Positions 3 to 33,506 of a stretch of 64,000 nucleotides of DNA are shown piece by piece. Made by a program: the position numbers and the translations under genes. The notes beneath the pieces were generated by a model. The model did no database searches, had not been told where the DNA came from, and worked only from the letters and a program-made list of their open reading frames with translations. Location: contig JAFUFK010000013.1 in the NCBI GenBank assembly GCA_017469925.1, positions 124,001 through 188,000 on the forward strand, read 5' to 3'. This DNA comes from Bacteroidaceae bacterium. Its GTDB lineage: Bacteria; Bacteroidota; Bacteroidia; Bacteroidales; Bacteroidaceae. The number at the start of each line of letters is the position of its first letter. Position 1 is the first letter of the stretch.

Positions 3-3000
3 GAAGCACTTTGCAACCTGGCCTTTGTGGCCTATAAGAACATGGACTTCGACGAGGTTGATAGCTGCATCTCTCTGGCGCGCACTTATAGCGACAATCC
101 CCTGATTCTGCTCTGTGCCGACGTCATGCAGATGAAGGCCTACCAGCGTACGGGCGAGGGCGAGCGATTCTTCAGGGTAAAGAGTCAGGCTGAAGACCGC
201 ATCCAGTATCTCTCCAACCGCCAAGAGCGTATGTCGGACCACGAGAAACAACTCTGGGTCTATGCACAGACGGAGTACTACCTCATCACCTCGACTTATT
301 ACTTCTATCAGGAGCAGGACTCGCTGGCACGCTCCGAGTTGCGCCATGTTCTTCCTGCCCTTCAACTTCGTGTCGATACCGCCCAGTGGGTCTATTACAA
401 CTACATGCTTGGGCCGGGCGGATTGGTCGAGGGACGCGATGCTCGCGACATTACCCTCCAAGAGTTCGACTACCTGTTCCGTGCCTACAATACGAGCCGG
501 CGCGACAGCCTTCGTTACTTCGAGGCCAACTGCCTACAGGCCCTTGCCACGATGTTCCTGTCGCACGATTCGCTGATTAGGGAAAACCGTCCCGACGAGT
601 ATCACCTGCTTCGCTTCCAGCACCATGCATCTGACGAAGCGACGGATGTCTTCCTGCCTTCCAGCCTTGCCCGCCATGCGTTGGATTTGTTTAAGGCCTA
701 TGGCGATCTCTTCCAGACGGCTTGTGCCTATCGTACGTTAGGCGAAATAGAATTCCAGCGAGGTGCCTATGAATCCTCGCTCTATTGTTACGAGCAGGCC
801 TTAGCCTGCGTCAATCAGCACCACCTCCGCTATTATGGCGATATTTCGCCCGATACGCTCATGGTCTTCAATCCCGACGACCTGTTGCGAAGTGTCGAGC
901 AGGAGTGGATTGAAGACCCACGCATCTCCACCGTGCCCGAGTGGATTGCGGGCATCCGTCAGCAGTTGAGCCTTACTTACAGTGCTTTAGGCATGAAACA
1001 GGCGTCGGACTACAATCGCAACTTCTACCTCGACCTCCTTCAGGCAACCAACCAGAATCAGGAACTCGAGAGCCGAACTGCCGAACTGGAATACCAGACG
1101 CGTTCGCTCAGGAGTCGCATGGTCCTTTGCGTCGTGCTGCTTGGCCTGGCCTTGCTACTGGCTTTGCTGGTGCAAAGGAGCCTGAAACGTCGTGTTAATA
1201 CGAGCCTGCGTGAACTTCAGGACGACCAGTGGCAACCTTATCGCGACTTCGTCGCATGGAACAAGGCCAAACTGGACGAACTGGACGAAGAACGCGAGGA
1301 GCAGGAGGAACGCTTGGAGATGAGCCGCCGACGCGTGACCGACGACAAACGGAAAAATGCAGAGAACAGGGCCAAGGTCTCTCTCGTACATGGTATCGTG
1401 CCCTTCCTCGACCGTATTGGCGGCGAGGTCGTACGTATGAATCAAGAGGGCACCATTAGTCCCGAGCGCCGGGAGTACATCGTGGAGTTGGTGGATGAAA
1501 TAGAACGCTACAATGCCATCCTTACCGAATGGATTCGCATGGAGCAAGGCCAGCTGAACCTGCATGTATCGACCGTGGAACTGCAAAAGCTCTTCGACAT
1601 CATTGCCGAGGGCCACTATGCCTTCGACCAGAAGCATGTGACCCTGCGTGTAGAGCCCACCGATGCCTTGGTGAAGGCCGACGAGAGTCTGACCCTCTTT
1701 ATGGTGAATACGCTATGTGACAATGCCCGCAAGTTCACGCCAGAGGAAGGCCAGGTCACGCTTTCGGCCGAGACGACGGAAGATTACGTAGAGGTGCGAG
1801 TGACGGATACCGGTTGCGGACTCTCGGAACAGGACGTCGAGACGTTGACCCATAATAAGGTGTACGACACCTCAGAGATTGGCACGCGGCCCGAAGGGAA
1901 AGGCTTTGGCTTCGGGCTGATGAACTGCAAGGGCATTATCGAGAAGTACAAGAAGACCTCTTCGCTCTTCTCCTGCTGCGACTTTGGTGTCCATAGCAAG
2001 TTGGACGAGGGGAGTACCTTCTACTTCCGCCTGCCGCGTGTCGTGAGGATGCTTATCTTGCTGATGCTCTTCCCCCTCTTGGCTCAGGCTGGAGAGGAGG
2101 TACAACTCTATGATTCGTTGTTCCTGGCCAACGTCGAGGGCAATTATGAGGAGGCCAAATGCATGGCGCAGCGCACCCTCGACGCATTGAATGCCGCACA
2201 TCCCGAGATGACACCCATGCTGCTTGTCGATTCTTTGGGAACTGAACCTGCGGAGATGCAATGGGCAAAGAGTGGAGTCCGTGCCGACTATGAACTGATT
2301 GTGGGCCTTCGCAACGAAATGGCTTTGGCGGCTTTGGCCCTGAACGACTGGACGATGTACCAGTACAACAACCGTGCCTGCATTCGCCTTCACAAGTACC
2401 TCCATCAGGACAAGACACTTCCGACCTATTTCCGCCGACTGGAGAGGACCCATCGCAACAGCAACCTCCTCTTGGTGCTCATCGTCGTAGCCTCTGCCCT
2501 GATATTGTTCTTCTCTGTCCGACTCTTGGTGGGACTGCAACTTTACAAGAAACGTGAGATTGACGAGCTGAAAGACTATTGCCTCCGTCTCTTTAGCGAA
2601 GCCCAATCATTGCCACAGAGCGAGGCTTTCCTGACCCAGACCTCCGACTACCCCGTGATGCAGCAACAGGCTTCGGCCTATCAGCACCGACTTGTCGAGG
2701 AGAGCCTGCAACCTATCAACCATTTACGCGACGAAATAGTCCGACTGAGCGACGAGCGTGCCCGACTGGAGTTCGAGCAGAACCGCCTCTACGTACAAAA
2801 CCAGATACTCGACAACTGTCTGTCAACCATCAAGCACGAGTCGATGTACTATCCCTCGCGCATTCGTCTCCTGACGGAGAAGATGCAGGAGGAGGACATC
2901 TCTCAGCTCTCGGAACTCGTCCACTATTACCGGCACCTCTATACCCTGCTTTGCCAACAGGCCGATGCCCAGGTGAGTCAGCCGGGTTTCAAGCGTCAGA

Positions 3001-3440
3001 CGCTCGATGCCGCGCTTGTACTATCCCGCGCCCACGGTTGTGCAACCAGGCTCGCTCGGAAGTACAACCTCGAAGGGGAGGTTGAGCAAGCGTCTGACCT
3101 CGATAGTACTACCCTGATACTGGGCGACGAAATCCTGCTCGACCTGCTCTTCGAATCCCTTCTCCAAGGTATGATTCATCCCGAAGCACGCCTCACGCTC
3201 CGGGCCGAGGACGAGGGCAACTTCGTACGCTACTCTATAGCAGATGCCTCCATACGGCTCACTACCGAGCAGTTGGCCGACCTCTTTTATCCCGAATCGG
3301 GAAAGATTGGCTACCTCGTGGCGAAGCAAATCCTTCGTGAGCACGACACCTACTCCAACCATCCCGGTTGCCGTCTGGTGGCCGAGCCAAGGGACGAAGG
3401 TTATGCAATATACTTTACCCTCTTGAAATCAAAACGATAA
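3..3440 (+). CDS. Tandem sensor histidine kinase / pseudokinase, 5' end outside window
   Basis: The frame is open from base 3, so the N-terminus lies upstream of the window; an internal GTG at 27 is probably not the start. In order (numbered from 27): TPR-like helices; a membrane segment near residues 363-385; a charged coiled coil; a DHp-like helix with His in SLVHGIVPF; and a HATPase domain with N box (CDNARKF), DTGCGLS and GKGFGFGLMNCKG. A second half follows: a signal-peptide-like membrane segment ending in AQAG (about 675-690), a short helical region, a third membrane segment (about 812-838), a coiled coil, a DHp-like stretch with KHESMYYPSR, and a degenerate HATPase-like end. The layout fits the Bacteroidetes DUF5112/DUF5113 sensor family as I recall it. 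It probably phosphorylates the regulator encoded 10 bases downstream. The stimulus is unknown. Confidence 0.8.
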   Translation, partial: EALCNLAFVAYKNMDFDEVDSCISLARTYSDNPLILLCADVMQMKAYQRTGEGERFFRVKSQAEDRIQYLSNRQERMSDHEKQLWVYAQTEYYLITSTYYFYQEQDSLARSELRHVLPALQLRVDTAQWVYYNYMLGPGGLVEGRDARDITLQEFDYLFRAYNTSRRDSLRYFEANCLQALATMFLSHDSLIRENRPDEYHLLRFQHHASDEATDVFLPSSLARHALDLFKAYGDLFQTACAYRTLGEIEFQRGAYESSLYCYEQALACVNQHHLRYYGDISPDTLMVFNPDDLLRSVEQEWIEDPRISTVPEWIAGIRQQLSLTYSALGMKQASDYNRNFYLDLLQATNQNQELESRTAELEYQTRSLRSRMVLCVVLLGLALLLALLVQRSLKRRVNTSLRELQDDQWQPYRDFVAWNKAKLDELDEEREEQEERLEMSRRRVTDDKRKNAENRAKVSLVHGIVPFLDRIGGEVVRMNQEGTISPERREYIVELVDEIERYNAILTEWIRMEQGQLNLHVSTVELQKLFDIIAEGHYAFDQKHVTLRVEPTDALVKADESLTLFMVNTLCDNARKFTPEEGQVTLSAETTEDYVEVRVTDTGCGLSEQDVETLTHNKVYDTSEIGTRPEGKGFGFGLMNCKGIIEKYKKTSSLFSCCDFGVHSKLDEGSTFYFRLPRVVRMLILLMLFPLLAQAGEEVQLYDSLFLANVEGNYEEAKCMAQRTLDALNAAHPEMTPMLLVDSLGTEPAEMQWAKSGVRADYELIVGLRNEMALAALALNDWTMYQYNNRACIRLHKYLHQDKTLPTYFRRLERTHRNSNLLLVLIVVASALILFFSVRLLVGLQLYKKREIDELKDYCLRLFSEAQSLPQSEAFLTQTSDYPVMQQQASAYQHRLVEESLQPINHLRDEIVRLSDERARLEFEQNRLYVQNQILDNCLSTIKHESMYYPSRIRLLTEKMQEEDISQLSELVHYYRHLYTLLCQQADAQVSQPGFKRQTLDAALVLSRAHGCATRLARKYNLEGEVEQASDLDSTTLILGDEILLDLLFESLLQGMIHPEARLTLRAEDEGNFVRYSIADASIRLTTEQLADLFYPESGKIGYLVAKQILREHDTYSNHPGCRLVAEPRDEGYAIYFTLLKSKR

Positions 3441-3450
3441 GCCCCAAGAT

Positions 3451-4173
3451 ATGGAACAATTTAAAGTCATCATTGTCGAGGATGTAAAACTCGAACTGAA
3501 AGGCACGGAACAAATCTTCCGAAGCGAAATCCCCGAAGCCGAAGTCATTGGTACGGCCCAGAACGAGAGCGAGGTGTGGAAACTCTTCCGCCAGGCCGAA
3601 CCCGACCTCTTGCTTCTCGACCTTGGACTGGGAGGCAGCACGACCATCGGTGTGGAAATATGCCGACAGGTGCGTACCCGCTATCCTCAGTGCCACGTGC
3701 TCATCTTCACGGGTGAAATCCTAAACGAGCGCCTTTGGGTCGAAGTACTGAAGGCAGGTGCCGATGGCATCATCCTGAAGACGGGCGAACTCTTGACCCG
3801 CGACGACGTGATGCTGGTTATGAAGGGCCGCCAGCTCGTCTTCAACCAACCGATATTGGAGAAGATTGTCGAACGCTTCAAGCGCAGCGTAATGGCTGAA
3901 TCTATGCAGCACGATGCCCTCATCAACTACGACATCGACGAGTATGACGAGCGTTTCCTGCGCCACCTTGCCCTGGGTTACACGAAGGATATGATTGCCC
4001 AACTCAAGGGTATGCCCTTTAGCCCCAAGAGCCTCGAGAAGCGTCAGACGGAACTTGTCAACCGACTCTTCTCCGAGCACGAGCGCAACGGGGTGAATGC
4101 CACCCGTCTGGCCGTCCGTGCCTTGCAACTCCACCTGATTGATATCGATAATCTGGAACCCGACGATGAGTGA
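3451..4173 (+). CDS. Response regulator with C-terminal helix-turn-helix
   Basis: A 240-residue protein. The receiver domain (about 1-125) has the acidic pair E10/D11, the phospho-acceptor Asp57 in LLLLDLGLG, a Thr in LIFTGE and a Lys in IILKTGE. The C-terminal half (about 165-225) resembles a divergent LuxR/NarL-type DNA-binding domain (DERFLRHLALGYTKDMIAQL, then SPKSLEKRQTELVNRLF). The gene lies 10 bases after the sensor kinase and overlaps the helicase start by 8 bases, so the three are probably co-transcribed. Its targets cannot be read from the window. Confidence 0.85.
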   Translation: MEQFKVIIVEDVKLELKGTEQIFRSEIPEAEVIGTAQNESEVWKLFRQAEPDLLLLDLGLGGSTTIGVEICRQVRTRYPQCHVLIFTGEILNERLWVEVLKAGADGIILKTGELLTRDDVMLVMKGRQLVFNQPILEKIVERFKRSVMAESMQHDALINYDIDEYDERFLRHLALGYTKDMIAQLKGMPFSPKSLEKRQTELVNRLFSEHERNGVNATRLAVRALQLHLIDIDNLEPDDE

Positions 4174-6679
4174 AGACCTGAGTGCGCATTTGCTTGAGGA
4201 CTTGAACGAAAACCAGCGTGAGGCGGTGGTTTGTTGCGACGCCCCCTCGCTCGTGATTGCTGGTGCGGGGTCGGGCAAGACACGCGTGCTTACCTATAAG
4301 ATAGCCTACCTCATGCAACAGGGCATGGAGCCTTGGTCCATCCTCGCCCTGACCTTTACCAATAAGGCTGCCCGCGAGATGCGCGAGCGTATCGGTCGGC
4401 TTGTGGGGGAGCATGAGGCCTCGATGCTTTGGATGGGCACCTTCCATAGCGTATTCTATCGCATTCTCCGTTACGAAAGCGAGCACATCGGCTTTACCTC
4501 ACACTTTACCATCTATGACGAGAGCGACTCGCGTTCGCTCATCAAGAACATCATCCGCGAGATGGGGCTCGACGAGAAAAAGATTAAGCCAGGTGGGATG
4601 CTTCGCCGTATCAGTGAGGCTAAAAACAAATTAATCAAGCCCAGTAATGGCTTGTCTTATGTAAATCTTTCTCTTGGTCAAAAGATTAGCATTGCAAATG
4701 TCAAATCAGATTTACTAAATCTTGGATTCAGTTGTTGTGCAGATTATGTTTCTAAGCTTGGGCAGTTTGCGATTCGTGGTGGTATATTGGATATTTTTAA
4801 TTATTTTGATAAAAAACTTTATTGCATTGATTTCGATGATGATATAATTAATTCTATCCGTATAATTGATTTGAAATCTCGGGATGTATTAGAGAAACGG
4901 AGTGAGTTACATATTACTGCCGAGGTTGAGAGTTCGGACTTATTTAGTAGACTATATAGCGTTTATCAGCAACGTCTCCGCCAGGCCGATGCAATGGACT
5001 TCGACGACCTCCTTCTTTATACCTACGTCCTGTTGAAAGAGAATCCCGACGTACGTCGGAAATACGAGGAGCGGTTCCAGTACGTCTTGGTCGATGAGTA
5101 TCAAGATACTAACTATGCCCAACACCAGATTGTCTGGCTGTTGACCGAACATCGTCAGCGCGTGGCCGTTGTGGGCGACGATGCACAGAGCATCTATAGC
5201 TTCCGTGGGGCTCGTATCGACAACATTCTGACCTTCCAGCAAGCCTATCAGGGGGCTCGCCTTTTCAAACTTGAGCAGAACTACCGCTCGACGCAGACCA
5301 TCGTGAATGCGGCCAATAGTGTCATCAGCAACAACCGCAGGCAGATACACAAGCAAGTCTTTAGCCGCCAAGCCGAGGGACTGCCCATTGAAGTATGCGA
5401 GGCCTATAGCGATAAGGAGGAGGCCGCCATTGTGGCCAGGAAGATTTACGAACTTGTCCACGGACAGTACGACTATAGCCAAATCACCATTCTCTATCGC
5501 ACCAACGACCAGAGCCGCATATTCGAGGAGGAGTTCCTTCGTCGCAAGTATCCCTATCGTATCTACGGCGGACTCTCGTTCTACTCGCGTAAAGTCGTGA
5601 AAGACGCATTGGCTTACTTGCGCCTGGCCGTGAATCCGCGTGATGAGGAGGCTCTGCGAAGGATTATCAACCGACCTGCCCGCGGTATTGGCAACACCAC
5701 TTTGGATAAAGTCTTCCGTCTGGCCGTTGACCGCCAAACCACGCCTTGGAGCATCATCAATGACCCCTATGCCTTCGGGCTGGAGGTCAATAAGCCCACG
5801 GCCGGAAGACTTCAAGCCTTCGCCCAACTCATCAATAGTGCGGCAGAGCTCGTGCCTACGGAACAGGCCGACACCGTGGCCATCCGCCTGCTGAAGGAGT
5901 CGGGGTTGGCCAGTGAAATCAATGCCGGACGAGAGCCAGAAGACCGCGAGAATCAGGCAAACTTCCAGGAACTCGTAGATAGTATCACAGCCTTCGTCTC
6001 CGACCGTCGCGAGGAGGGGCTGCCTTACCAACTCACCGACTTCCTGCAACTTGTCTCCCTGCTTACCGACCAGGATAAGGATGAGGGAAGCGACGCAAAC
6101 TCCATCACCCTGATGACCCTGCATGCGGCTAAGGGACTCGAGTTTCCCGTCGTCTTCATCGTAGGCATGGAGGAGAACCTATTCCCCAACGAAATGTCTC
6201 TGAACGAAGGCAATCTGGAGGAGGAACGTCGCCTCTGTTATGTCGGCATTACGCGTGCTGCTGAACGATTGTTCCTTTCGTGGAGCCATTCGCGTCTGCG
6301 CCATGGGAAGTTCGAGAACAACCAACGGAGTCGCTTCCTGCGCGAGATTGACCAGAACCTTATCTCCAAGGGCCAGAAGCCTCAAAGCAGTCTGCTCTTT
6401 GGCACTCAGCGTCCCATGCGACCTGCTGTTGTGCCCACGCCTCAGGTCCAGCGTCCAGTGTTCAATAAGCCTCAGGCACCCAGTATCCCGCCTTCACCTT
6501 CAGGCACGTCGTCTGGCACGATTGCCCCAGGCACCACCATCATTCACAACCGTTTTGGTCGTGGCGTGGTGACGTCGGTCGAAGGGACGGGGCTCGATAC
6601 GAAGGCCACCGTCCAGTTCGACAATGCAGGTGTGAAACAGTTGCTCTTACGCTTTGCTAAGTTCGAGGTGGTAGATTGA
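4166..6679 (+). CDS. UvrD/PcrA-type SF1A helicase with an inserted Mfd/UvrB-like domain
   Basis: An ATP-dependent 3'-5' DNA helicase of 837 residues. Visible motifs are Walker A (GAGSGKT), Ia (LTFTNKAAREM), Ib (MGTFHSVFYRIL), DFDDLL, motif II (VDEYQDTN), III (VVGDDAQSIYSFRGA), IV (LEQNYRST), V (TLHAAKGLEFPVVF) and VI (YVGITRAAERL). The C-terminus ends in a small domain about binding to fixed DNA or protein partners (FGRGVVTSVEG), usual in PcrA. The start is ATG 4166, inside the end of the response regulator gene (ATGAGTGA); a longer reading from 4139 would only extend into that gene. Between RRISEAKNKLI and LYSVYQQRLRQADAMDFDDL the usual short helical linker is replaced by about 110 residues of AT-rich DNA (see the separate entry). 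All helicase motifs are intact, so the enzyme may still be active. Confidence 0.93.
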   Translation: MSEDLSAHLLEDLNENQREAVVCCDAPSLVIAGAGSGKTRVLTYKIAYLMQQGMEPWSILALTFTNKAAREMRERIGRLVGEHEASMLWMGTFHSVFYRILRYESEHIGFTSHFTIYDESDSRSLIKNIIREMGLDEKKIKPGGMLRRISEAKNKLIKPSNGLSYVNLSLGQKISIANVKSDLLNLGFSCCADYVSKLGQFAIRGGILDIFNYFDKKLYCIDFDDDIINSIRIIDLKSRDVLEKRSELHITAEVESSDLFSRLYSVYQQRLRQADAMDFDDLLLYTYVLLKENPDVRRKYEERFQYVLVDEYQDTNYAQHQIVWLLTEHRQRVAVVGDDAQSIYSFRGARIDNILTFQQAYQGARLFKLEQNYRSTQTIVNAANSVISNNRRQIHKQVFSRQAEGLPIEVCEAYSDKEEAAIVARKIYELVHGQYDYSQITILYRTNDQSRIFEEEFLRRKYPYRIYGGLSFYSRKVVKDALAYLRLAVNPRDEEALRRIINRPARGIGNTTLDKVFRLAVDRQTTPWSIINDPYAFGLEVNKPTAGRLQAFAQLINSAAELVPTEQADTVAIRLLKESGLASEINAGREPEDRENQANFQELVDSITAFVSDRREEGLPYQLTDFLQLVSLLTDQDKDEGSDANSITLMTLHAAKGLEFPVVFIVGMEENLFPNEMSLNEGNLEEERRLCYVGITRAAERLFLSWSHSRLRHGKFENNQRSRFLREIDQNLISKGQKPQSSLLFGTQRPMRPAVVPTPQVQRPVFNKPQAPSIPPSPSGTSSGTIAPGTTIIHNRFGRGVVTSVEGTGLDTKATVQFDNAGVKQLLLRFAKFEVVD
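4621..4965 (+). other. AT-rich in-frame insert encoding a UvrB_inter/Mfd domain-2-like module
   Basis: Hand counts give 19/60 G+C for 4681-4740 and 13/60 for 4801-4860, against 32/60 for 5041-5100 in the same gene. The encoded segment, about helicase residues 153-267, contains LSLGQKI, an LLNLGF stretch, DYVSKLGQFAIRGGILDIF, a short beta region and DDDIINSIRIIDLKSRDVLEK. This order matches the UvrA-interaction domain of UvrB and Mfd (family pattern: G.(F/Y)A(I/V)RG...D(I/V)F, then I.(F)F.DE(V/I).SIR.(F/.)D..(T/S)). The frame is kept on both sides with no stop. I infer recombination with a low-GC donor. Confidence 0.8.
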
Positions 6680-7134
6680 TAAGGTCCTTCACCACTTCAC
6701 CCCCAATGACAATGCCCGCAGCAGCGGGTACGAAAGCATTCGAGGCCGGAACGCTTCGGCGGCCTTCGCTTTCCATTGGTTCAGCCGGTTTCAATGGAAT
6801 CTCCTCGCTATAGACGACCTTCAGGTGACGAATGCCCTCACGACGTAGGGTTGTGTGCATAATCTTTGCCAACGGGTCAACTTGCGTCTTCGAAAGGTCA
6901 CTCACACGGAAAGCCGTCGGGTCAAGCTTGTTGGCCGCGCCCATCGAGGAGATAATGGGGATGCCCAAATGGTGGCATCGGCGAACGGGCTCCATCTTTG
7001 CCACTTCGTGCCAATACCTCCACCACATAGCCACCTACACCGCCTACACCGAATATGGCCACATGAGCATCATGCAACCTTTCGATGGCCTCCCGGCCAA
7101 GTAACATCTGTGTTCTGGTGAATTGATTTTCCAT
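6657..7134 (-). pseudogene. tcdA: Decayed tcdA (tRNA threonylcarbamoyladenosine dehydratase)
   Basis: Two pieces of an E1-like enzyme that cyclises t6A37 in tRNA. The N-terminal piece starts at ATG 7134 and has the family opening (MENQFTRTQMLLGREAIERL) and the nucleotide loop GVGGVGG. It runs about 45 codons to ARSG, after which the frame shifts. The second piece, in another frame, starts at RRCHHLGIPIISSMGAANKLDP and continues to IGGEVVKDLIN. Roughly 80 residues that normally lie between them are missing. These include the residues for the adenylate ribose and the middle of the fold. The junction lies near 7003-7010. The 3' end overlaps the convergent helicase gene by about 20 bases. Intact family members are about 240-270 residues, so this copy should be inactive. 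Confidence 0.85.
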
Positions 7135-7143
7135 ATTCGCTCA

Positions 7144-7151
7144 CAAAGATA
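7144..7151 (-). promoter_or_regulatory. -7 box of the tcdA remnant promoter
   Basis: On the minus strand the bases read TATCTTTG, ten bases upstream of the ATG at 7134. No matching TTG lies 19-21 bases further upstream. The plus-strand box at 7196-7203 faces the other way, so the two genes are divergent. The DNA between them (about 7155-7195) is made of short imperfect TAATTCT-like repeats. Confidence 0.5.
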
Positions 7152-7195
7152 AGGAATAATTCCTAATTCTTAATTCTTAATTATTAATTATTTTG

Positions 7196-31358: not shown

Positions 31359-33506
31359 ATGAAGAAGTATTTCCTCCTGCTGATGCTCTCTGCATCGTGT
31401 GTGCTGATGGCCCAAGGCCAGCGGCTGACCGACTATGTCGATCCCCTCATCGGTTCTGGCGACCACGGCCACGTCTTCGTCGGAGCCAACGTGCCCCAGG
31501 GCATGGTCAACGTCGGGCCTACCCAACTGGAGACCGGTTGGGACTGGTGCTCGGGCTACCACTACGACGGCCGCCAGATAGTCGGCTTCGGCCACTTGCA
31601 CCTCTCCGGCACGGGTTGCAGCGACCTGGGCGACATAGCCCTGATGCCCACCCTGCAGGAGTTGGAACTCTCGCGCGAGGGACTGGCCACGCCCTTCCGC
31701 CACGAGAACGAACTGGTCAGGCCGGGCTACTACGGCGTCGTCCTCGACAAGTCGAACATCCGTTGCGAGATGACCTGTACCGAGCGTGTGGCACTCCACC
31801 GCTACACCTTCCCGCGCGGCTCCAACAACGCCCGCATCATCATCGACCTGGCCAACGCCGTGGGCGACCGCCTCTCGCAGGCACGCATCTACCGCCTCGA
31901 CGACACCACCCTGGCCGGCTACCGCCTGAGCCACGGCTGGGCACCCCAGCAGCAACTCTATTTCGTCATCCAGTTCTCGAAACCCATCCACAACTGGCTC
32001 TGCAACCCCGAGGACATGTCCTACTCGCAGGCCACCTTCGAGGTCGGTCCCGGCGAGAGCCTGCTCGTCAAGGTTGCCCTTTCGCCCACTAACGAGATGA
32101 ACGCCCGCCTGAACATGGCCACCGAGATGCCCGGATGGGACTTCCAGACCGTGCGCCAGGAGGCCCTCCAGGCCTGGGACACCCAGCTCGGACGCATCAA
32201 AGCCCGCTTCCGCACCGAGCGCGAACGGCGCATCTTCTACACCGCACTCTACCACTTCCTCTATGCCCCCGTCGTATGGAACGACGTCAACGGCGACTAC
32301 ATGGGCTCCGACGGCCGCATACGCCACGCTGCCCAGTTCCAGAACTTCACCACCTGGAGCCTCTGGGACACCTACCGCGCAGCCCATCCCCTGGCCACGC
32401 TCATCCTGCCCGACGTGCTTCAGGACTACGCCCAGACGATGCTCCACATCTACCGCGAGCAGGGCGAACTGCCCGTATGGCACCTCATGTCGAACGAGAC
32501 CTACTGCATGGTGGGCTGTCCCGCCGTACCGGTACTGGCCGACCTGGTGCTGAAGGGCGTCCCGGGATTCGACTACAAGGAAGCCTTCCAGGCCATGAAG
32601 GCCAGCCTCCTCAGGGACAACCGCTCGCTCGACCGCATGAAGCAGTACGGATGGGTGACCTGGGACACGGGCGACGGCGAGGCCGTAGCCAAGAGTCTCG
32701 AGTACTACCTGGCCGACTGGAGCGCCGCCCAGGTTGCAGGCCTTGTGGGAGAGAAGGAAGACAGTGCCTATTTCTACAACCGCTCGATGAACTACAAGCG
32801 CATGTTCGACCCCGAGCGGCAGGTGATGCGCGCCCTGAGCACAGAGGGAAAATTCCGCGACGAACCCAACTTCAACCCCGGCCACCAGACGCGCGACTAC
32901 ACCGAGGGCAACCCCTGGCAATACACTTGGCTCGTGCCCCACGACGTCCCAGGACTCGTCGGCTGCTTCCCCTCGAAGCAAGCCTTCATCAATCGCTTGG
33001 ATGCCCTCTTCGAAGCCGACGGCGACCTGGGTGAGAACGCCAACCCCGACATCACGGGGCTCATCGGCCAGTACGCCCACGGCAACGAACCCAGCCACCA
33101 CGTCCTCTACCTCTACAACTACGTAGGCCAGCCCTGGAAGACCCAGCAGCGCGTGCGCCAGGTCATGCAGGAACTCTACACCGACCAGCCCGCCGGTCTC
33201 TGCGGCAACGAGGATGTCGGCCAGATGTCGGCCTGGTACCTGCTCTCGGCCCTCGGCCTGTATCAGGTGGAGCCCTGCGGCGGAGTCTATCAGCTGGGTA
33301 GTCCCGTGGTCGAGGAGGCCACCATCCACGTCGGCCAGGACCGCACCTTCACCGTGCGCACCCACGGCAACTCCGACCAGAACATCTACGTCCGCGAGGT
33401 GCGTCTCAACGGCCGCCGTCTCACCGAGCCCCGCATCCACTATCGCGACATCGTGGCGGGCGGCACGCTCGACTTCTACATGACGAGTAAACCTGGGAGG
33501 AAGTAA
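31359..33506 (+). CDS. Secreted alpha-mannosidase, GH92
   Basis: A 715-residue calcium-dependent exo-alpha-mannosidase. After the signal peptide (MKKYFLLLMLSASCVLMAQG) come the family signatures YVDPLIGSGDHGHVFVGANVPQG, QTLE-like METGWDWCSGYHY and FGHLHLSGTGCSDLGDI. Further motifs are the (alpha/alpha)6 core FTTWSLWDTYRAAHPL and GNEDVGQMSAWYLLSALGLY, where the acidic residues act in catalysis. It probably trims mannose from N-glycans in the periplasm. The gene is unusually GC-rich at third positions, which leaves a very long open antisense frame. Codon use becomes normal again after the gene. Confidence 0.93.
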   Translation: MKKYFLLLMLSASCVLMAQGQRLTDYVDPLIGSGDHGHVFVGANVPQGMVNVGPTQLETGWDWCSGYHYDGRQIVGFGHLHLSGTGCSDLGDIALMPTLQELELSREGLATPFRHENELVRPGYYGVVLDKSNIRCEMTCTERVALHRYTFPRGSNNARIIIDLANAVGDRLSQARIYRLDDTTLAGYRLSHGWAPQQQLYFVIQFSKPIHNWLCNPEDMSYSQATFEVGPGESLLVKVALSPTNEMNARLNMATEMPGWDFQTVRQEALQAWDTQLGRIKARFRTERERRIFYTALYHFLYAPVVWNDVNGDYMGSDGRIRHAAQFQNFTTWSLWDTYRAAHPLATLILPDVLQDYAQTMLHIYREQGELPVWHLMSNETYCMVGCPAVPVLADLVLKGVPGFDYKEAFQAMKASLLRDNRSLDRMKQYGWVTWDTGDGEAVAKSLEYYLADWSAAQVAGLVGEKEDSAYFYNRSMNYKRMFDPERQVMRALSTEGKFRDEPNFNPGHQTRDYTEGNPWQYTWLVPHDVPGLVGCFPSKQAFINRLDALFEADGDLGENANPDITGLIGQYAHGNEPSHHVLYLYNYVGQPWKTQQRVRQVMQELYTDQPAGLCGNEDVGQMSAWYLLSALGLYQVEPCGGVYQLGSPVVEEATIHVGQDRTFTVRTHGNSDQNIYVREVRLNGRRLTEPRIHYRDIVAGGTLDFYMTSKPGRK

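What the first reader, a model, noticed from the sequence alone, without database searches (positions are those of the whole stretch)
4617..4965. UvrD/PcrA helicase carrying a whole UvrA-interaction module in domain 1B
Seen: about 345 bases with roughly 20-32 percent G+C in hand-counted lines sit in frame within a gene that is about 53 percent in a nearby line. The encoded residues follow the order of the UvrB/Mfd domain 2 (GQFAIRGGILDIF, then DDDIINSIRIIDLKS). Known: that domain binds UvrA in UvrB and Mfd; UvrD-type helicases do not normally have it, and in PcrA domain 1B this place is a short helical linker. Inferred: a low-GC donor contributed the fragment by recombination, and because both junctions keep the frame and all helicase motifs survive, a working chimera that could recruit UvrA is possible. 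A neutral accident is the alternative.
Basis: partly seen in the sequence, partly recalled or inferred. Interest (0 to 1): 0.85.

Follow-up and report, generated by a model that had tools for sequence, protein, structure and literature searches.

The report
DNA helicase with foreign repair domain
In one Bacteroidales draft genome the only UvrD/PcrA DNA helicase found carries, in a surface loop, a whole extra domain of the kind that lets the repair protein Mfd bind UvrA; the DNA looks foreign, two related species carry different foreign-looking patches in the same part of the gene, and the domain has lost two of three residues known to matter for UvrA binding.

Summary
The window's uvrD/pcrA gene (4166-6679) contains an in-frame ~294-bp insert (about 4646-4939, residues 161-258) in a loop of domain 1B. 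It encodes an Mfd/UvrB domain-2 fold (Pfam UvrB_inter, 50.8 bits, cut-off 22.9; best PDB matches are Mfd). The insert is 33% G+C, the rest of the gene 55%. It is the only UvrD/PcrA found in the 86%-complete assembly; ordinary mfd and uvrB genes are elsewhere.

In the genus, 117 of 120 measurable uvrD genes have a 111-114-aa 1B region. The exceptions, the window (193 aa) and two other species (143 aa each), are also the three deepest GC dips. Those two carry a low-GC UvrD-type 1B variant; one has a sister with 97% identical flanks and a normal 1B. Among 399 other ORFs tested, none shows a convincing patch (Fisher p=0.012; 0.052 without the window). So 1B of uvrD may be a recurrent site of short foreign replacements.

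UvrA recruitment is not supported: the insert keeps R165 but not R181 and F185, and 8 of 16 residues invariant in 40 Mfds. The helicase looks intact and evolves at a normal rate. Most likely it is a working helicase with a tolerated insert. Assembly error could not be excluded without reads.

The parts
4166..6679 (+). uvrD/pcrA helicase gene, 837 aa (ATG at 4166; an upstream in-frame TTG lies at 4139), the only UvrD/PcrA found in the assembly
4166..4645 (+). UvrD part 1 (domain 1A start and first part of 1B), residues 1-160
   Evidence: phmmer to PcrA 1pjr: query 5-160 to chain 4-159
4646..4939 (+). non-UvrD insert, residues 161-258 (98 aa), in the 1B loop that corresponds to PcrA residues 160-171
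   Evidence: gap between the two PcrA-matching stretches; codon comparison with five relatives
4661..4921 (+). Mfd/UvrB domain 2 (Pfam UvrB_inter), residues 166-252
4940..6679 (+). UvrD part 2 (end of 1B, 1A, 2A, 2B, C-terminal tudor at residues 789-831), residues 259-837
   Evidence: the sub-domain names are recalled from PcrA/UvrD structures

Best explanation
A single-copy, working PcrA/UvrD helicase has had a short loop of domain 1B replaced by about 294 bp of low-GC DNA encoding a diverged Mfd-type domain 2. Shown: the domain match, the in-frame junctions, the conserved helicase sequence, no second copy in the assembly, the absence of this join from the relatives measured, and different low-GC replacements in the same region in two other species. 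Inferred: the DNA came from a low-GC organism by short-patch, mainly illegitimate recombination; it survives because this loop tolerates insertions; the domain folds and sits on the helicase surface but no longer binds UvrA in the known way.
For: UvrB_inter at 50.8 bits, cut-off 22.9. GC and codon-position shift. Net +80 aa in a region of 111-114 aa in 117 of 120 genus UvrDs, and of 112-113 aa in 80 of 80 Bacteroidota UvrD loci kept as best matches to the window protein. The window protein keeps 163 of 167 columns conserved in at least 56 of 57 other UvrDs, and its flank branch (0.121) lies within the range of its clade, 0.075-0.182. No other PcrA-type gene found; the only other UvrD-family hit is a 1108-aa ORF. 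Mfd and UvrB genes with higher-scoring domain 2 present. G017 against sister G106: sharp breakpoints, flanks about 88-93% identical in DNA, 1B dissimilar. GC-dip scans: 283 ORFs of at least 600 bases tested in 464 kb of the own genome, three flagged, uvrD the only convincing one; 237 ORFs in genus loci, of which 117 not uvrD, the only flags being uvrD patches and one run of N. UvrA-contact residues R/C/D.
Against: The donor was not found: nothing scores better than genus Mfds at 42-44% identity (139 genus, 393 order and 395 phylum genomes, the last two with cuts at E 1e-17 and 1e-11). Tree placement of the patch is unresolved (support 42 or less, branch 1.6). The scans for patches in other genes cover about 16% of this genome and a selected set of loci in others; the hot-spot contrast is p=0.012, or 0.052 without the window, which was chosen for its patch.
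Confidence: 0.6

Rival explanations
1. Functional UvrA-recruiting chimera: the inserted domain 2 brings UvrA to UvrD, coupling the helicase to nucleotide excision repair as Mfd does.
For: The domain that binds UvrA in UvrB and Mfd is present over 87 of 91 Pfam positions; R165 is kept; UvrD already acts in this pathway (PMC2997466, abstract opening seen in the listing).
Against: R181 and F185 are replaced by C and D, and 8 of 16 residues invariant in 40 Mfds are lost; the score is 54.5 bits against 93.6 for the own Mfd and 102.7 for the own UvrB; not found in the 119 other measured uvrD genes of the genus.
Confidence: 0.1
2. Adaptive swapping of 1B: this surface of the helicase is bound by a phage, plasmid or toxin factor, and replacing it escapes that factor.
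For: Three low-GC patches of different extent in one region of one gene in 120 species; a contig break inside the same region in a further species, G096; no convincing patch in 399 other ORFs tested.
Against: No such factor is known to me; 3 of 120 is few (p=0.012, 0.052 without the window), and a tolerant loop would give the same pattern by survival alone.
Confidence: 0.15
3. Assembly chimera: reads from a low-GC organism were joined into the uvrD contig.
For: Draft, probably metagenome-derived assemblies; uvrD genes share conserved motifs around the site; the G096 contigs break here.
Against: The window lies in a 443-kb contig; both junctions are in frame; the insert is mfd-like, not a homologous uvrD stretch; three genome assemblies (whose relation to each other is unknown) would need an error at the same site.
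Confidence: 0.1
4. Copy of the genome's own mfd domain 2 moved into uvrD, then drifted to low GC.
For: The best similarities found are to Mfds of the genus, including the subclade of the window's species, 40-44%.
Against: The own mfd locus is 60% GC and the patch 32%; relatives with 84-88% identical uvrD flanks have a normal 1B, which leaves little time for such drift; E. coli Mfd falls in the same weakly supported tree group, so the similarity is not diagnostic.
Confidence: 0.05

Closest known systems
PcrA/UvrD helicases (SF1A; PcrA 1pjr, E. coli UvrD 2is1)
   Same: Helicase core, UvrD_C and C-terminal tudor domain; best solved match is PcrA 1pjr
   Different: 98 aa in place of a 1B loop of 12 aa in PcrA (residues 160-171); the 57 other UvrDs in the alignment give no UvrB_inter match
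Mfd domain 2 (E. coli 4dfc, 2b2n)
   Same: Same domain over its length; R165 kept
   Different: Lies inside a helicase of another superfamily; R181 to C, F185 to D; no other Mfd domain found
UvrB domain 2 (3fpn, 2fdc)
   Same: Same Pfam family UvrB_inter
   Different: Only 23% identical to the own UvrB over the core alignment
uvrD of G017 and G108 (same genus)
   Same: Low-GC patch in the same 1B region; in G017 UvrD similarity resumes at the corresponding residues
   Different: The patch is a UvrD-type 1B with about 30 extra residues and no Mfd-domain match

Membership tests
PcrA/UvrD helicase | UvrD_helicase and UvrD_C Pfam domains above cut-off | tested here: met
   283.1 and 264.5 bits
PcrA/UvrD helicase | C-terminal PcrA/UvrD tudor domain | tested here: met
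   PF21196 32.9 bits, cut-off 23.9
PcrA/UvrD helicase | NCBIfam PcrA equivalog cut-off (911.2 bits) | tested here: not met
   757.5 bits; three relatives without the Mfd insert also miss it, 740.5, 740.8 and 760.1, so the miss is not due to the insert; filed as a UvrD/PcrA-type helicase, not as a certified PcrA equivalog
PcrA/UvrD helicase | Helicase activity | not testable with these tools
   Needs purified protein
Mfd/UvrB domain 2 | UvrB_inter Pfam score above cut-off | tested here: met
   50.8 bits in the whole protein, 54.5 for the stretch alone, cut-off 22.9
Mfd/UvrB domain 2 | UvrA-contact residues equivalent to E. coli Mfd R165, R181, F185 | tested here: not met
   R, C, D in the insert; R, R, F in 40 of 40 Bacteroidota Mfds; residues named in PMC3025350 (passages read)
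Mfd/UvrB domain 2 | Binds UvrA | not testable with these tools
   Needs a binding assay
Mfd (transcription-repair coupling factor) | Whole Mfd, with RNAP-binding and SF2 translocase modules | tested here: not met
   NCBIfam mfd 37.9 bits against a cut-off of 800; Pfam shows only UvrB_inter besides helicase/AAA and tudor families

The most novel reading that the evidence does not exclude
Domain 1B of the single UvrD helicase is a swappable surface in this genus: lineages repeatedly replace it with foreign segments, including an unrelated repair-protein domain, because some mobile-element or phage factor exploits it, so the chimeras are adaptive rather than accidental.
Probability: 0.15. Interest if true: 0.75.

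Novelty: new variant of a known kind. Interest (0 to 1): 0.5.

Why it matters
A housekeeping helicase that accepts a whole foreign domain without losing its conserved core would show how repair proteins can gain modules in one step. If 1B of UvrD is a true hot spot, it points either to an unusually tolerant loop, useful to protein engineers, or to an unknown factor that binds UvrD in gut and rumen Bacteroidales.

Tried and rejected
Donor search: insert as protein in 139 genus, 393 order and 395 phylum genomes, in genome contigs and viral contigs (pattern matches but none confirmed; records near the window's own genome may be left out there), in phages and plasmids (three weak hits, 38-48% over 39-58% of the query, not identified); a 21-base exact pattern in viral contigs (none); DNA of 4500-5100 against phages (nine records with short matches of 5-15% of the query, none across the insert). 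No donor found.

Donor of the G017/G108 patch: alignment A1 in 393 order genomes (42 genomes with a match at E<=1e-10, none starting before model position 21 of 98), viral contigs (none confirmed), plasmids and phages (two and four partial hits).

General patching of genes as the explanation: not seen in the part scanned. Of 283 ORFs tested in 464 kb of the own genome (322 ORFs listed, 39 too short to test) three were flagged. I discounted two on reading: one is a minus-strand ORF whose dip lies just upstream of the + strand ORF 31359-33506, the other a dip upstream of what I recall as a dnaX-like start. In one search the only flag that is not one of the three uvrD patches is L072, a run of N. 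Many ORFs in both sets may be spurious.

Tree of domain 2: not informative on the donor. The genus Mfd loci used there (L002-L031) were the 30 best matches, a biased set. An apparent subclade signature, FFDDE, is also present in E. coli Mfd, so I do not use it.

PADLOC gives only general UvrD-helicase matches such as GajB and RTasHel among the 25 of 47 rows shown; I take these as shared helicase core. Papers: no report of a UvrD helicase carrying Mfd/UvrB domain 2 appeared among the rows shown by searches (8 to 12 rows each, of 17 to 1,666 papers found); the library holds open-licence papers only. Two searches on illegitimate recombination showed nothing specific.

Full report
What is there. 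The window is bases 124001-188000 of contig C20 (442,899 bp) of a 2.87-Mb, 28-contig draft assembly with 85.8% completeness (contig length). Its taxon is not named by the tools; named relatives are mostly Bacteroidales, many from rumen or gut samples. The gene at 4166-6679 encodes an 837-aa PcrA/UvrD helicase with UvrD-helicase, UvrD_C and tudor domains. It misses the NCBIfam PcrA equivalog cut-off (757.5 against 911.2 bits), but so do the three relatives I tested (740.5, 740.8 and 760.1 bits). Against PcrA 1pjr the protein matches at residues 5-160 and 259-835 (chain 4-159 and 172-723). Residues 161-258, window 4646-4939, are therefore extra; they replace a 1B loop of 12 residues in PcrA and, from the net gain of 80 aa, about 18 in close relatives.

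What the insert is. Pfam finds UvrB_inter (PF17757) at residues 166-252, 50.8 bits in the whole protein and 54.5 in the stretch alone, cut-off 22.9. phmmer against the PDB gives E. coli Mfd domain 2 first (4dfc, E=8.3e-9) and UvrB much weaker (best 0.032). The identity is 43% to the genome's own Mfd and 23% to its own UvrB over the core alignment. Of 58 aligned Bacteroidota UvrDs (the window's and 57 of the 80 loci) only the window's has this domain.

Composition. GC is 0.29-0.34 in the 150-bp windows inside the patch against 0.48-0.60 on either side. By codon position the patch is 0.41/0.29/0.26, the flanking parts 0.53/0.40/0.71 and 0.61/0.38/0.66; the reading frame has no stop while the other five frames have 7 to 16. 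I read this as coding DNA from a low-GC source.

Is it the only such gene? One other UvrD-family gene was found in the assembly, a 1108-aa ORF, and no second PcrA. There are further genes with UvrB_inter at 102.7 bits (699-aa frame, uvrB-like) and 93.6 bits (1034-aa frame, mfd-like). In 464 kb of the own genome (16%), 283 ORFs were long enough to test; three were flagged for internal GC dips; uvrD is one, and I read the other two as ORFs running over intergenic DNA.

Relatives. A normal uvrD from species G127 finds a match in 121 of 139 genus genomes. I fetched the region from these 121; in 120 the stretch GTFHS to DFDDLL could be measured, and in one, G096, the gene is split by a contig break inside exactly this stretch. 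The length is 113 aa in 113 of 120 and 111-114 in 117 of 120. The three exceptions are the window (193), G017 (143) and G108 (143), and these are also the three deepest GC dips: -0.36, -0.35 and -0.21, against a mean of -0.069 and SD of 0.053 over all 120; the next is -0.15. Among 80 Bacteroidota uvrD loci from genome contigs, kept by the tool as best of 588 matches to the window protein, the length is 112 or 113 in all 80. In the order search with the normal uvrD, 376 of 393 genomes match; in the rows printed, only the window's genome breaks at 1B, and the table was cut before the end.

The other two patches. G017 and G108 carry a UvrD-type 1B with about 30 extra residues, 50% identical to each other, and the patches have no match to an Mfd domain. 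They are not sisters: G017 is sister to G106 (support 0.992), with 97.2% identical protein flanks and a normal 1B; G108 is closest to G094, also normal. Between G106 and G017 the DNA is about 88-93% identical up to and after sharp breakpoints. I take that patch as a recent replacement by foreign DNA. The low GC in G108 runs further to the right (downstream GC 0.41), so the two replacements seem to differ in extent. Of 237 ORFs tested in 420 kb of genus loci, 120 are uvrD copies and 117 are not; the only flags are the three uvrD patches (G017's present in two loci, the window's in L032) and one run of N.

Is the helicase still working? Indirect evidence says yes. The window protein keeps 163 of 167 columns conserved in at least 56 of 57 other UvrDs; the misses are at residues 140, 252 (inside the insert), 477 and 694; two relatives keep 167 of 169 by a like measure. 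Its flank branch length of 0.121 lies within its clade's 0.075-0.182.

Does the insert bind UvrA? Probably not in the known way. Changing Mfd R165, R181 and F185 to alanine disrupts the interaction with UvrA (PMC3025350, passages read), and PMC7385628 names R165 and R181 as critical (passages read). The insert has R, C and D at these places (residues 204, 220, 224), while 40 of 40 Bacteroidota Mfds have R, R and F. It keeps 8 of 16 positions invariant in those 40. The 40 are the 30 best matches of the genus search and 10 from the phylum search, so they are not a random set.

Origin. No donor was found. The closest Mfds are of the genus, the best at 40-44%, but the tree does not resolve the position (support 42 or less, branch length 1.6), and E. 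coli Mfd falls into the same group. I leave the donor open. Relatives with 84-88% identical flanks have a normal 1B, so the insert is probably younger than those splits.

Mechanism. Best supported: short-patch replacement by foreign DNA, between similar uvrD genes in G017 and G108 and illegitimate in the window, surviving at a tolerant loop. That this loop is special is suggested by 3 of 120 uvrD genes against 0 convincing of 399 other ORFs tested (Fisher p=0.012); without the window, which was chosen for its patch, it is 2 of 119 and p=0.052. Species are not independent and the two discounted flags are left out, so this is weak. Whether the cause is tolerance or selection cannot be told from these data. 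Assembly error remains possible because no reads are available.

Context. The rows shown by literature searches held no UvrD with an Mfd/UvrB domain 2; only open-licence papers are held.

Noticed in passing
window 6651-7160 (-): Directly after uvrD, on the other strand, lies what reads as a decayed tcdA/ThiF-like dehydratase gene: a 125-aa C-terminal ORF with stops upstream. In G058 (L079) a related ORF on the locus holding uvrD is 241 aa long. The family name is recalled from the sequence; Pfam gave no hit for the short ORF.
   Followed up: partly
L062 (G108) 1278-1568 and L081 (G017) 2962-3252: Two other species of the genus carry a low-GC UvrD 1B variant with about 30 extra residues whose donor was not found.
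   Followed up: partly
L063 and L064 (G096, end of contig C58 and start of contig C47): The uvrD gene of this close relative is split by a contig break exactly inside the 1B region, which may mean strain variation there.
   Followed up: no
window 27-4173 (+): Upstream neighbours are a DUF5112/DUF5113 histidine kinase and a DUF5932 response regulator, ordinary for the group as far as I recall.
   Followed up: no
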